The notes under the pieces are model-generated. The model saw nothing but the letters and a program-made list of their open reading frames with translations, had not been told where the DNA came from and did no database searches. DNA of 64,000 bases from Pelagibius litoralis (GTDB lineage: Bacteria; Pseudomonadota; Alphaproteobacteria; Kiloniellales; Kiloniellaceae), in assembly GCF_011683915.1 (NCBI RefSeq), contig NZ_JAAQPH010000008.1:62001-126000 (forward strand), written 5' to 3'. The position numbers and the translations under genes are program-made. Positions 30,036-47,577 of the stretch are shown here, in pieces. Position 1 is the first letter of the stretch. Every line of letters starts with the position of its first letter.

Positions 30036-31841
30036 ATGACCGATGCCAAGCAGCAGGTCCTGAAAGAGGTTTTCGGCTTCGACGACTTTCGGCCGGGCCA
30101 GGCCGATATCATCGACACCCTGCTGGCGGGCCGTTCCGCCCTTGCCGTCATGCCCACCGGGGCCGGCAAGTCGCTGTGCTTCCAGGTTCCCGCCCTGGTG
30201 CTGGGAGGCCTCACAATCGTGGTTTCCCCCCTCGTCGCCCTGATGCAGGATCAGGTCGCGGCGCTGCGCCTGGCCGGGGTTGAAGCGGAAACCATCAATT
30301 CCTCGCGTTCACGCGAAGACAACATCGCTTCCTGGCGGCGTGTCGCGGCGGGGGAAACGCGCCTGCTTTACCTGGCGCCGGAACGCCTGATGACGGAGCG
30401 TATGCTCACCGCCCTGGAGCGCCTGGACGTCAGGCTGATTGCGGTCGACGAGGCGCATTGTATCTCTCAGTGGGGCCCGGCCTTCCGACCGGAATACGAG
30501 GATCTTGCGCGATTGCGGGAAATCTTCCCCGGCGTACCGATTGCAGCGCTCACCGCCACCGCCGACGCCACCACCCGCAAGGATGTGGTCGAACGGCTCT
30601 TTGGCAATCAGGCGGAGAGTTTCGTCCTGGGCTTCGACCGGCCGAACCTGCAGCTTGGTGTCGAGGTAAAGCGCACCTGGAAAAACCAGCTGCTCGCCTT
30701 CGTCCAACGCTACGAGAGTGCGAGCGGGATCGTCTACTGCCTGTCGCGCCGCAAGACCGAAGAGGCTGCGGCCTTCCTGGCCGAAAACGGCGTGAAGGCG
30801 CTGGCCTATCACGCCGGCATGGATAAACAGCTGCGCGATGCCAACCAGAATGCCTTCATGACCGATGACGGTGTGGTCATGGTGGCGACGATCGCCTTCG
30901 GCATGGGCATCGACAAACCGGACGTGCGTTTCGTCTTTCACTGCGATCTGCCCGCCTCCGTCGAAGCCTACTATCAGGAGATCGGCCGCGCCGGGCGCGA
31001 CGGCCAGCCGGCGGAGGTGCAGATGCTCTATGGGCTGGACGATATCCGCATGCGCCGCGTCTTCATCGAACAGGAAGACGGCGGCGACGACCGCCGGCGG
31101 CGCGAGCACCAGCGCCTCGACGCGCTGATCGGATACTGCGAGTCGCCGAGCTGCCGGCGGCGGCTGCTTCTCGAATACTTCGGCGAAACCATGGAGAACT
31201 GCGGGAACTGCGACCTCTGCCGCAACCCGGTGGAACTCAGCGACGGCACGGCGGAGGGGCAGAAAATCCTGGCCGTGATAGACCAGACCGGCCAGCGCTT
31301 CGGCGTCGGCCACATCGTCGACATCCTGCGTGGGACAACGACGGAGAAAGTCACCAAGGCTGGCCACGACAGGCTGCCCGGCTTCGGCGCCGGCGCCGAG
31401 GGCAAGAAAGAGGCCTGGCGCTCCTTCCTGCGTCAGCTCGTCGCCGCCGGGTTCCTGCGTCTGGATATCGCGGGCTATGGCGGCCTGGGGATCACCTCAA
31501 AGGGGCAAGCCCTGCTGCGCGGCGAGGTGCCGTTCCACTATCGCCTCGACCGTATCGCAACCGGCGGCGGAAAAGCCGTCCGCAGCCGATCAAAAGCGCC
31601 GGAACAGGATATGACAACCGTGCAGTCGGACCTTCTTCACAAGCTGAAGGAGCTTCGCCTGCGCCTGGCCAAGGACCGCGGTGTTCCCGCCTATGTCATC
31701 TTCCCCGACCGGACCCTGATCGACATGGCGCGGCGGCAGCCGCAGACACATGATGAGTTCGCCGAGGTAAACGGCGTAGGCGCAGCCAAACTACGCGACT
31801 TCGCCGATATCTTCCTGGGCGAAATCGCCGGCGCCGGTTAG
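30036..31841 (+). CDS. recQ: ATP-dependent DNA helicase RecQ
   Basis: 3'-5' DNA helicase for recombination and replication-fork repair, about 601 residues from the ATG at 30036. Upstream in-frame starts from 29913 would add 41 residues with no family match; the chosen start has only a weak ribosome-binding site. Motifs: [15 protein letters not shown] (motif 0), MPTGAGKS (Walker A), [12 protein letters not shown] (DEAH box), ALTATAD and [10 protein letters not shown]. The RQC zinc-binding cysteines follow ([19 protein letters not shown]...CGNCDLC), then a C-terminal HRDC domain ([29 protein letters not shown]). It converges on ureG with a 4-base overlap. Confidence 0.95.
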
Positions 31842-32479
31842 GCGACCGAACTTTCGGCCTCGCTGCTCAGACCGCCAAGTTTTTCGACGAAGGCGGCGAT
31901 CTCACTCACACCCTGTCCCGCCTTCACCTGGGCAAAAACGAAAGGCCGTTCGCCCCGCATCTTCCTGGCGTCCCGGTCCATGACCTCCAGGCTGGCACCG
32001 ACCAGAGGCGCAAGATCGGTTTTGTTGATGACCAGCAGATCGGAGCGGGTGATGCCCGGCCCGCCTTTGCGCGGAATCTTATCGCCCGCCGACACGTCGA
32101 TCACGTAGATCGTGATATCCGCCAGTTCCGGGCTGAAGGTCGCCGCCAGGTTATCCCCGCCGGATTCAATGAGCACCAGGTCGAGCCCCGGAAAGCGCGC
32201 CGACATGTCGGCAACGGCGGCCAGGTTGATCGAGGCGTCCTCGCGGATCGCGGTGTGGGGGCAGCCACCGGTCTCGACGCCCATGATCCGTTCCGGCGGC
32301 AACGCGCCGGAGCGGGTCAGGAACTCCGCATCCTCGCGCGTATAGATGTCGTTGGTGATGGCGGCGATGTCGTAGCGCGGCGCCAGGGCCTTGCAGAGCG
32401 CATCCATCAGCGCCGTCTTGCCGGAACCGACGGGCCCGCCGATGCCGACCCTGAGAGGGCCTGTTGCGGAAACAGTCAT
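31838..32479 (-). CDS. ureG: Urease accessory GTPase UreG
   Basis: GTPase that drives nickel delivery to urease, 213 residues. The P-loop is [11 protein letters not shown] at residues 12-22. The conserved nickel-site CPH motif is in [18 protein letters not shown], followed by [19 protein letters not shown] and the base-recognition INKTDLAP. It is the last gene of the urt-ure block, and its start overlaps the ureF stop (ATGA). Confidence 0.97.
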
Positions 32480-33162
32480 GAGCGGAACAACCTCGTGTAT
32501 TGGGTTTCGTGTTTCATGGCGGCGAGATCGGCGAGAACCGCCGCGCCGCCCAGGTCTTCCAAAGAAGCATCCAGCGCCGCCTCAACTGTTTCGGCAATCG
32601 CCGGCTCCAAAGCCGCCGTTACCCGCTGGCCGTCGCTCTGTCCCAAAGGAACGAGACGAACCCCGGCCGAGACCAGATTGGCCGCGAAGCCGTGGAGAAA
32701 GGCATGGAGACTCGCCCGCAGCGGCAGCCCATGGCCGGCAGCGGCCACGCCGACAACGACGGGATAGACCAGAGGGCCCTGCCAAGCGGCCTTCAGGCAA
32801 TCCAGGGCCGGACAAGGCCAGGCGTCCGCCGTCGCCATCGCAAAGGCGCGACCCTGAGCCGCCGTTTCAAGCTGCCGCTCAGACGACGCAGCAAAGGCCG
32901 CCGCCAGCGCGGCGACTTGCGCCAGCGCCGCCGGGTCTTCAGCCGCCTCGAAGGCATGGCGGAAGAGGATGGCATCGTTGCGCCCGGAACCAAGCATCAG
33001 AAGATCGGTGAGCCAGCTCCGCAGCCCGGCGGCATCGGTCACAGTTTCCTGCTCGACCACGAACTCCAGGCCGTGAGAGTAACTGAAAGCGCCCACAGGA
33101 TAGGACGGCGACAGCCATGTCATAAGGCGATAGAGCCCGGCGGCGTTCAGCCCCTCAGTCAT
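32476..33162 (-). CDS. ureF: Urease accessory protein UreF
   Basis: Helical accessory protein that, with UreD and UreG, forms the nickel-insertion complex on apo-urease; 228 residues from the ATG at 33162. [23 protein letters not shown] at the N terminus is diagnostic. An 11-residue longer reading from 33195 is possible but lies inside the ureE end. The gene overlaps ureE by 8 bases and ureG by 4. Confidence 0.95.
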
Positions 33163-33625
33163 GGTGTTCGTGCCCCTGCACAGAGCCATGCCCATAGGCG
33201 CCCCCTTCCGGATCGAAGGGTGCCTCGATCAGTTCGGCGCGCGCACCCAGTTTGGTGAGCATCTCGAGAATGACATGATCCTCGCGAATTCTGAGGCAAT
33301 CGCCGAGAATCTGGGTCGGCAGGTGACGATTGCCGAGATGCCAGGCAATGCGGACCAGATCGATACCGGCGCCGGCCCGCACCTCTATCAGGCGTTCCGA
33401 CGCCGCCACCACAGCGACGATACCGCCCTCCTCCAGTACCAGTCCGTCGCCGTCCGCAAGGGCAACGGCCTTCGGCAGGTCGAGCAGAAACGCCACACCG
33501 GTCTGACCGTGCATGGCGATGCGCCGGCGGTGGCGCGCATCGAAATCCAGAATCACGGAATCGCAGGCCTCCACCAAGGGCCAGGTTCCCGCCGCTTTCA
33601 CCGATGTCGCCCGTAACATGAGCAT
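33155..33625 (-). CDS. ureE: Urease accessory nickel metallochaperone UreE
   Basis: Nickel-binding chaperone, 156 residues. It has the UreE N-terminal fold ([37 protein letters not shown]). The metal-binding domain ([40 protein letters not shown]) contains HLGNRHLP, and the tail ends GHEHHD. The tail is short compared with the very His-rich tails of Klebsiella UreE. The start was taken at the ATG 4 bases after the ureC stop; a second ATG two codons later is equally possible. Confidence 0.92.
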
Positions 33626-33629
33626 AAGC

Positions 33630-47361: not shown

Positions 47362-47402
47362 CCTGTTCGATCTCGTTTCGCCGTTCTGAGGTCGAAAACA
47401 GG
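47362..47402 (-). promoter_or_regulatory. Possible riboswitch expression platform sequestering the ribosome-binding site
   Basis: On the minus strand CCTGTT (47397-47402) is complementary to AACAGG (47362-47367), which is part of the AACAGGAGG ribosome-binding site of the binding-protein gene. Pairing would hide the site; guanidine binding upstream could release it. No good rho-independent terminator was found between aptamer and start, so translational control is the better guess. Confidence 0.4.
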
Positions 47403-47440
47403 CAAAGAGAATTCCTGAAGACGGCCACAGACCTCTTGCA

Positions 47441-47551
47441 GTGATCTCCCGGGATTTTGGCCCGCCGTGGCTCCGGGTTGATGTTCCCGGAGTGCATCTC
47501 TCGGACCAGACACCGTCGCTTTCGACGGTCGGAACCCTAGACGCCCTGCGT
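47441..47551 (-). promoter_or_regulatory. Guanidine-I (ykkC) riboswitch aptamer
   Basis: Read on the minus strand, the conserved elements occur in order. CTAGGGTTCCG is at 47530-47540, followed by a hairpin (ACCGTCG/CGACGGT) and TCTGGTCCGAGAGAT. Next is a hairpin with arms CTCCGGG and CCCGGAG, then ACGGCGGG, a short A-rich loop and CCCGGGAGA ending at 47445. This is the ykkC/guanidine-I pattern, which binds free guanidinium. It lies 93 bases before the GTG of the binding-protein gene and starts at the predicted sigma-54 transcription start (about 47551). Confidence 0.92.
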
Positions 47552-47562
47552 CCGGACCATCC

Positions 47563-47577
47563 GCAAACAACGTGCCA
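47563..47577 (-). promoter_or_regulatory. Sigma-54 (RpoN) promoter of the guanidine operon
   Basis: TGGCACGTTGTTTGC on the minus strand is a full match to the sigma-54 -24/-12 consensus (TGGCAC, 5 bases, TTGC), with the invariant GG and GC correctly spaced. The predicted start is near 47551, at the edge of the riboswitch. It implies activation by an enhancer-binding protein, most simply NtrC under nitrogen limitation. Confidence 0.88.

What the first reader, a model, noticed from the sequence alone, without database searches (positions are those of the whole stretch)
31838..47577. A complete, contiguous guanidine-to-ammonia locus: riboswitch, importer, guanidine hydrolase, urea importer, urease
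Seen: on one strand, a sigma-54 promoter, a guanidine-I riboswitch, an ABC importer, an agmatinase-family enzyme, a His-rich protein, urtABCDE and ureDABCEFG. Known: guanidine-I riboswitches sense guanidinium, GdmH-type ureohydrolases release urea and ammonia from guanidine, and urease completes nitrogen release. Inference: this is a self-contained guanidine assimilation island in an alphaproteobacterium that bypasses the guanidine carboxylase route. The direct adjacency of hydrolase and urease gene sets is unusual and worth describing.
Basis: partly seen in the sequence, partly recalled or inferred. Interest (0 to 1): 0.93.

Follow-up and report, generated by a model that had tools for sequence, protein, structure and literature searches.

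The report
Guanidine-to-ammonia island with His-rich partner
An alphaproteobacterium carries, side by side, genes to import guanidine and break it down to ammonia, and the guanidine-splitting enzyme is followed by a small, undescribed histidine-rich protein that may load its nickel.

Summary
On the minus strand lie, in order, a sigma-54-type element, a guanidine-I riboswitch (87.7 bits), an ABC importer, a guanidine hydrolase (67% identical to Sll1077/GdmH; guanidinobutyrase 32%), a His-rich 147-aa protein, urtABCDE and ureDABCEFG, with the genome's only UreC.

The enzyme assignment is well supported by sequence. The guanidinase-urease neighbourhood is uncommon but not unique: four other arrangements were found, one in Rubrobacter. 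The urt-ure block has its own 395-nt leader, so riboswitch control of urease is unproven.

The more interesting part is the His-rich gene. A relative follows GdmH in 76 of 80 related loci (one an incomplete frame). In two even genome draws all 16 distinct GdmH-bearing genomes have it just downstream; only two other genomes have it, as remnants. It matches no Pfam or NCBIfam family, hence not HypA/HypB, the nickel chaperones used by Synechocystis GdmH; about half of the partner-bearing genomes tested, this one included, have no HypA. Best reading: a dedicated nickel-delivery partner of GdmH (inferred, untested; the window's copy has only 9 His). New variant of a known kind.

The parts
47562..47577 (-). 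sigma-54-type -24/-12 element TGGCACGTTGTTTGCG, 10 nt before the aptamer
   Evidence: 1 mismatch; not above chance by itself; kept ahead of 35 of 79 riboswitches vs 4 of 1580 control windows. Consensus recalled.
47444..47551 (-). guanidine-I (ykkC) riboswitch aptamer
   Evidence: Rfam RF00442, 87.7 bits, gathering 63; a model built from 8 aptamers finds one in 78 of 81 sources, the 7 source sequences of the model among them
46264..47352 (-). ABC importer substrate-binding protein (guanidine by context)
   Evidence: TIGR03427 548.6 bits, cut-off 333.9
45413..46234 (-). ABC importer permease
   Evidence: PF00528; conserved order in related loci
44598..45416 (-). ABC importer ATPase
   Evidence: conserved order
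43382..44611 (-). GdmH, guanidine hydrolase
   Evidence: phmmer 548 bits to 7esr/7oi1, 529 to 9fek, next 173; 66.9% and 63.8% identity, tree, motif
42939..43382 (-). His-rich GdmH partner, 147 aa; His-containing N-terminal tail plus ~100-aa core; start codon overlaps the GdmH stop (TGATG)
42544..42938 (-). 395-nt leader before urtA with a 23-nt direct repeat (42851-42829 and 42575-42553)
   Evidence: no credible Rfam family
41254..42543 (-). UrtA, urea-binding protein
   Evidence: TIGR03407 576 bits, cut-off 493
39532..41175 (-). UrtB permease
   Evidence: TIGR03409 428 bits, cut-off 250
38383..39528 (-). UrtC permease
   Evidence: TIGR03408 461 bits, cut-off 296
37578..38390 (-). UrtD ATPase
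   Evidence: TIGR03411 384 bits, cut-off 304
36875..37570 (-). UrtE ATPase
   Evidence: TIGR03410 347 bits, cut-off 286
36007..36963 (-). UreD (frame as listed)
   Evidence: PF01774 171.5 bits
35670..36083 (-). UreA, urease gamma (frame as listed; family match from residue 38)
   Evidence: PRK13241 163 bits, cut-off 123; PF00547
35344..35892 (-). UreB, urease beta (frame as listed; family match from residue 80)
   Evidence: PRK13203 167 bits, cut-off 129; PF00699
33630..35411 (-). UreC, urease alpha (frame as listed; family match from residue 26)
   Evidence: PRK13207 1068 bits, TIGR01792 996 bits; only UreC of the genome at E 1e-100
33155..33679 (-). UreE (frame as listed)
   Evidence: PF05194 94 bits, PF02814 54 bits
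32476..33195 (-). UreF (frame as listed)
   Evidence: PF01730 134.6 bits
31838..32479 (-). UreG
   Evidence: TIGR00101 345.6 bits, cut-off 204

Best explanation
This is a guanidine assimilation locus. Under nitrogen limitation sigma-54 RNA polymerase starts transcription at or near the 5' end of the aptamer; guanidinium binding to the riboswitch lets the operon be expressed. The ABC importer brings guanidine in, GdmH hydrolyses it to urea and ammonia, and urease, encoded in the next block with a urea importer, releases two more ammonia. The 147-aa His-rich protein, made from the frame overlapping gdmH, is a dedicated partner of GdmH: its flexible His tail binds nickel and its folded core docks on GdmH to load or retain the metal, doing the job that GhaA/GhaB (HypA/HypB kind) do for Synechocystis GdmH. 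Shown here: gene content, order, homology, promoter and riboswitch conservation, near-exclusive co-occurrence of the His-rich family with GdmH in two genome draws, absence of HypA from this genome. Inferred: guanidine as substrate, nickel as metal, delivery by the His-rich protein, nitrogen control, any joint control of urt-ure.
For: GdmH: (66.9% to Sll1077, 63.8% to 9fek; the 11 GdmH-type rows form one group, support 88/90, below the tool's star mark; GTGWPEPGG in 81 of 81 GdmH rows). Riboswitch. Sigma-54. UreC in 20 of 20 GdmH genomes examined. His-rich partner: class draw of 385 genomes, GdmH in 11 and partner in 13, all 11 shared; phylum draw of 398, 7 and 7, the same seven; Fisher p 1e-19 and 3e-15, which ignore relatedness. 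The two extras are a 5'-less fragment and a piece fused behind a cut importer gene. Start, as I chose it, within 20 nt of the GdmH stop in 68 of 75 full frames; median 18 His per protein; HLHSH in 64 of 75. No HypA in the own genome, no HypB over the cut-off. Synechocystis GdmH is reported to require GhaAB, and GdmH to be activated by nickel chaperones (passages of PMC11271267 and PMC11399263).
Against: No biochemical data. The window's own copy has only 9 His, half the family median; His content runs from 1 to 33 and L020 has 1, so nickel binding by the tail cannot be universal; the core has no conserved His or Cys. HypA is present in 28 of 55 and 3 of 13 genomes tested, and His content shows no clear difference between genomes with and without it. 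GdmH loci of three gammaproteobacterial MAGs (78-83% identical enzyme) and of four actinobacterial records lack the partner nearby, and two of the three MAGs also lack HypA, so GdmH may do without both. The N. inopinata guanidinase made in E. coli without chaperones was active, though under-loaded with nickel (PMC11410670, section 7 read). In PMC11271267 chaperone co-expression had no significant effect on metformin hydrolase in cell extracts, while the knock-out did not grow on metformin (passages).
Confidence: 0.62

Rival explanations
1. The His-rich protein is a structural or regulatory subunit of GdmH (assembly, stability, active-site gating); the His tail is a secondary metal buffer.
For: The core, not the tail, is the conserved part (mean column identity 62% for the core, vs 39% for the whole), with no conserved His or Cys; members with almost no His exist. 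A two-protein ureohydrolase has a precedent in the MefH alpha/beta heterohexamer (PMC11399263 passages).
Against: The N. inopinata guanidinase is a homohexamer, said to resemble the Synechocystis enzyme (PMC11410670 section 7). Most members are strongly His-enriched with recurring motifs (HLHSH 64 of 75, GHN 58 of 75).
Confidence: 0.25
2. The His-rich protein is a nickel store or buffer serving urease, hydrogenase or the cell at large, and sits beside GdmH only because guanidine use raises nickel demand.
For: His-rich nickel stores are known (recalled); UreC is present in 20 of 20 GdmH genomes examined.
Against: Apart from two remnants it is found in the draws only where GdmH is, always beside it, while in 13 of the 16 drawn GdmH genomes UreC lies on another contig or more than 0.9 Mb away.
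Confidence: 0.1
3. The enzyme is an agmatinase or guanidinobutyrase of an ordinary polyamine pathway and the riboswitch only guards against guanidine.
For: The best NCBIfam names are agmatinase models.
Against: Both agmatinase models score below their cut-offs (209 vs 302; 158 vs 174); 67% and 64% identity to solved guanidinases; the N. inopinata enzyme made no detectable urea from five larger guanidino compounds and very little from agmatine (PMC11410670 section 7); tree and Trp motif.
Confidence: 0.03

Closest known systems
Synechocystis sll1077-1082 operon (GdmH, GhaA/GhaB, ABC importer)
   Same: Guanidine-I riboswitch, ABC importer, GdmH 67% identical
   Different: There, two Ni-delivery proteins of the HypA/HypB kind are in the operon (passages of PMC12186494, PMC8390497, PMC11271267, PMC12930504); here a single unrelated His-rich protein follows GdmH. 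A figure legend in PMC11410670 says that four genomes, two of them unnamed guanidine model organisms (one presumably Synechocystis), have urease away from riboswitch-regulated genes; here it is adjacent
Nitrospira inopinata guanidinase locus
   Same: Guanidine-I riboswitch and a guanidinase (9fek, identification recalled) 64% identical
   Different: APC permease instead of an ABC importer; no Ni chaperone found and loading called unclear; urease elsewhere (PMC11410670, passages and section 7)
Metformin/dimethylguanidine hydrolase operon (Aminobacter, Pseudomonas)
   Same: Ni-dependent ureohydrolase with a nickel-chaperone gene pair and, in the chromosomal Aminobacter operon, genes of urea transport and metabolism (PMC11399263 passages)
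   Different: Heterohexameric enzyme, hypA/hypB and hupE; no guanidine riboswitch mentioned in the passages seen
Rubrobacter indicoceani plasmid NZ_CP031116.1
   Same: Guanidine-I riboswitch, GdmH (65%) and urease genes within one stretch
   Different: Sodium:solute symporter and a formamidase gene between GdmH and urease, no ABC importer or urt annotated in the 5-kb flanks; no His-rich partner there

Membership tests
Guanidine hydrolase (GdmH) | Closest to characterised guanidinases, apart from agmatinase and guanidinobutyrase | tested here: met
   548 and 529 bits vs 173 for the next; tree and identities
Guanidine hydrolase (GdmH) | Active-site Trp (Trp305 in Synechocystis, Trp313 in N. inopinata) | tested here: met
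   GTGWPEPGG in 81 of 81 GdmH rows; T in the two nearest own paralogs; that the motif Trp is Trp305/313 is inferred from its place, not checked on a structure
Guanidine hydrolase (GdmH) | Hydrolyses guanidine, Ni-dependent | not testable with these tools
   needs enzyme assay
Guanidine-I riboswitch | Score over the family cut-off ahead of guanidine genes | tested here: met
   87.7 vs 63 bits
HypA/HypB (GhaA/GhaB) nickel chaperones, for the His-rich protein | Match to the HypA or HypB models | tested here: not met
   no Pfam or NCBIfam match; none of the 5 families listed for the 43 scanned members is HypA or HypB
HypA/HypB (GhaA/GhaB) nickel chaperones, for the His-rich protein | Delivers Ni2+ to a client enzyme | not testable with these tools
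   inferred only
ZrgA zinc uptake proteins (PF10986), for the His-rich protein | Profile match to ZrgA | tested here: not met
   4 of 43 members at best E 0.017, window protein none; profile-profile against three ZrgA sequences gives probability 0.2%
UreE urease chaperone, for the His-rich protein | Match to the UreE models | tested here: not met
   no Pfam match for the His-rich protein while the locus's own UreE matches PF05194 and PF02814
Urease with UrtABCDE importer | Subunits, accessory proteins and importer over curated cut-offs | tested here: met

The most novel reading that the evidence does not exclude
The His-rich protein founds a new family of enzyme-dedicated nickel metallochaperones, unrelated to HypA/HypB and UreE, that arose in Alphaproteobacteria with guanidine hydrolase and replaces the two-protein GhaA/GhaB system by a single, translationally coupled partner.
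Probability: 0.5. Interest if true: 0.75.

Novelty: new variant of a known kind. Interest (0 to 1): 0.6.

Why it matters
How a guanidinase without HypA/HypB-type chaperones obtains its nickel was left open in print for N. inopinata (PMC11410670). A family that in two genome draws occurs, apart from remnants, only beside GdmH is a concrete candidate for an answer in Alphaproteobacteria, testable with two genes in E. coli. The repeated, differently arranged linkage of guanidinase with urease in two phyla suggests that cells treat guanidine as a urea precursor, and the sigma-54 element plus riboswitch suggests that many of these bacteria use guanidine as a nitrogen source and do not merely detoxify it.

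Tried and rejected
ZrgA zinc-uptake relationship of the His-rich protein: suggested by weak Pfam hits, rejected by profile comparison.

NtrC-type upstream sites ahead of the sigma-54 element: no clear enrichment. A known RNA family in the urtA leader: nothing credible. Terminator behind the aptamer: only a weak 5-pair hit inside the first gene, fewer than one standard deviation from the shuffles; the leader folds no better than shuffles (z -1.31), so how the riboswitch switches is unresolved. Sigma-70 promoter before urtA: none by the scan.

Inverse relation between His content and HypA: looked for, not seen. Whether the three gammaproteobacterial genomes hold the partner elsewhere: not tested.

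Gene neighbours were called from mechanical frames and tblastn with window proteins, so divergent neighbours may be missed. The start codons of the 75 partner frames were chosen by a rule of mine (first ATG at or after the GdmH stop), which affects tail lengths, His counts and gaps. L071 ends at GdmH and L013 has no start in frame; both are counted in the 80.
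Full report
OBSERVATION. The window belongs to a 6.03-Mb genome of 99.48% completeness. Rfam finds a guanidine-I aptamer at 47551-47444 on the minus strand. Behind it lie, all on that strand, three ABC importer genes, an arginase-family enzyme, a His-rich small protein, five urea importer genes and seven urease genes, each named by a curated model except the His-rich one, with the importer permease and ATPase placed in their ABC classes only. 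The binding protein scores 548.6 bits against TIGR03427, a 'putative urea ABC transporter' model; in this context guanidine is the likelier substrate (inference). A second Rfam hit, '5_ureB_sRNA' antisense to ureC, recurs in the ureC of L007 and of Rubrobacter and is probably the conserved urease coding sequence seen from the other strand.

ENZYME. The best solved relatives are 7esr/7oi1 (548 bits, the Synechocystis guanidinase) and 9fek (529 bits); both are deposited under agmatinase names, and that they are Sll1077 and the N. inopinata guanidinase is my recall, in line with the texts of PMC8390497 and PMC11410670. Guanidinobutyrase 3nio follows at a distance (173 bits). Identities are 66.9%, 63.8% and 32.2%. 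In a 16-row tree the nine window and locus GdmH rows that I put in and the two solved guanidinases form one group (88/90, below the tool's star mark) apart from 3nio and three own-genome ureohydrolases; a fourth own paralog is a very long branch at the drawing root, and a fifth, weak genome match was not put in. Two NCBIfam agmatinase models match but below their cut-offs. GTGWPEPGG is present in all 81 GdmH rows (window plus 80 loci) and reads GTGTPE in the two nearest own paralogs and in 3nio. The reported active-site Trp (PMC11410670, section 7 read) is most likely this one. The guanidinase role is strongly supported, though not assayed.

REGULATION. A sigma-54-type element ends 10 nt before the aptamer. 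In the window alone it is no better than chance. Over 79 riboswitches from 78 sources (window included) the 16-mer occurs with at most one mismatch in the 68-nt window at the 5' end in 35, against 4 of 1580 random windows of the same loci; in 31 of the 35 it lies 9-16 nt before the aptamer. The loci are related, so these are not 35 independent events. It is mostly missing in Rhodobacteraceae-type loci (my reading against the titles). A model built from eight aptamers (seven sources, themselves in the search) finds a riboswitch in 78 of 81 sources; L044, L048 and L112 have none, L044 probably because its contig starts just before the importer; L013 and L060 were not given. In L112 a sigma-54-like 16-mer with two mismatches stands before the importer without an aptamer. 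The switching mechanism is unresolved.

UREASE LINKAGE. UreC was found in 20 of 20 GdmH genomes given (16 from the two even draws, 4 picked by me), once only in the own genome. It lies near GdmH in three of the 16 drawn genomes: here; in G096, where urtABCDE-ureDABCEFG runs directly into the guanidine genes on the same strand; and in G327, where it converges on them about 6 kb away. Among the 80 loci (flanks up to 10 kb, some cut) it is near in L007, with the order of the window, and in the gammaproteobacterial L045, with two divergent riboswitches. A Rubrobacter indicoceani plasmid holds riboswitch, GdmH, a symporter, formamidase and ureABC. PMC11410670 states that four genomes shown have urease away from the riboswitch genes (figure legend), and PMC11399263 mentions urea genes in an Aminobacter operon with a related ureohydrolase (passage). 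Searches of the held papers for guanidine hydrolase or guanidinase with urease or urea transporter listed 3, 4 and 0 papers; in the four of these that I searched for passages I saw no guanidinase-urease locus; the eLife paper listed was not opened, and the 2022 Nature paper on GdmH is not held. The adjacency is thus a recurrent, differently arranged linkage and not a single oddity.

THE urtA LEADER. A 395-nt stretch separates the His-rich gene from urtA. It holds a 23-nt direct repeat, one copy about 90 nt after the His-rich gene and one just before the urtA start, both kept in L007; with at most 3 mismatches it occurs nowhere else among the 129 sequences then held (L001, a copy of the window's own region, apart), ten of which carry other urtA genes, while most of the leader has diverged between window and L007. 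A TTGACA stands before the second copy in both (my reading), although the promoter scan finds nothing. The urt-ure block may therefore be transcribed on its own.

THE HIS-RICH PARTNER. The protein has no Pfam or NCBIfam match. Among 80 GdmH loci, 75 have a full frame of this family and L013 a frame without start; L071 ends at GdmH; L045, L052 and L057, all gammaproteobacterial MAGs, have none. In 68 of 75 it starts within 20 nt of, or overlapping, the GdmH stop. The family has a variable tail (median 18 His per protein, range 1 to 33, at least 10 in 67 of 75; 9 in the window) with HLHSH in 64 and GHN in 58 of 75, and a core of about 100 residues predicted with pLDDT 92.9. In L008 the His-rich stretch is at the other end. 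No core position reaches 70% His or Cys; Asp16, Pro56 and Pro69 are invariant in the 43 rows. In 385 genomes of the class, GdmH (E 1e-100) occurs in 11 and the partner (E 1e-5) in 13, including all 11; in 398 genomes of the phylum both occur in the same 7. Two (G000, G107) are in both draws, so 16 distinct GdmH genomes all have it, on the same strand within 400 nt downstream of the GdmH match. The two extras are remnants: a 5'-less piece beside unrelated genes and a piece fused behind a cut importer gene. On two named plasmids it is annotated 'hypothetical protein' after 'agmatinase family protein'; S. fredii NGR234 has a divergent copy (E 4.7e-34). It was not found within 5 kb of GdmH in four actinobacterial records.

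NICKEL. GdmH of Synechocystis is reported to require two nickel chaperones (GhaAB), and the related metformin hydrolase depended on HypA/HypB co-expression in one study, while in another co-expression had no effect in extracts but the knock-out failed to grow (passages of PMC11271267 and PMC11399263). This genome has no HypA and no HypB over the cut-off (its UreG is the best match). In the five drawn genomes with both GdmH and HypA, HypA lies on another contig. So in about half of the cases something other than HypA must serve, and the His-rich protein is the obvious candidate. Against this, two of three gammaproteobacterial MAGs have neither HypA nor, near GdmH, the partner, so GdmH may also be loaded by urease chaperones or unaided.

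VERDICT. The pathway is a new combination of known parts; the enzyme identity is as firm as sequence can make it. The novelty is the partner family, for which nickel delivery is the best but untested explanation. No paper describing it appeared in the lists (searches showed 10 of 14 and 20 of 67 papers); most subscription papers are not held.

Noticed in passing
window 34899-35186 +: Rfam 5_ureB_sRNA (130.9 bits) antisense to ureC; also hit in L007 and in the Rubrobacter ureC, so probably an echo of conserved urease coding sequence rather than an RNA gene.
   Followed up: partly
window 42829-42851 and 42553-42575 -: A 23-nt direct repeat (GTGCAACATCA-N3-TCTAGCGGA) in the urtA leader, kept in L007 although most of the DNA between has diverged; possible operator or RNA element.
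   Followed up: partly
L112 9370-9450: Guanidine operon (G096) with a sigma-54-like element (two mismatches) but no guanidine-I aptamer found, directly downstream of urt-ure.
   Followed up: partly
L045 9182-9367 - and 9745-9887 +: Two divergent guanidine-I riboswitches, one before the importer and one before GdmH, between urease and urtA genes in a gammaproteobacterial MAG.
   Followed up: partly
L132 4807-11149: Rubrobacter indicoceani plasmid with guanidine-I riboswitch, GdmH, symporter, formamidase and urease genes.
   Followed up: partly
L091 5092-5343 and L092 6586-6894: Remnants of the His-rich gene without GdmH: decayed or rearranged guanidine loci.
   Followed up: yes
L086 13735-17313 -: Urt-like importer genes (39-52% identical to UrtA-E of the window) convergent with the guanidine operon of Cognatishimia activa, without urease in the 10-kb flank.
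   Followed up: no
window 48768-50503: Next to the island: a helix-turn-helix plus binding-protein-like regulator (+) and a binding protein that looks tungstate/molybdate-like (-; name by eye, Pfam gives only PBP-like).
   Followed up: no
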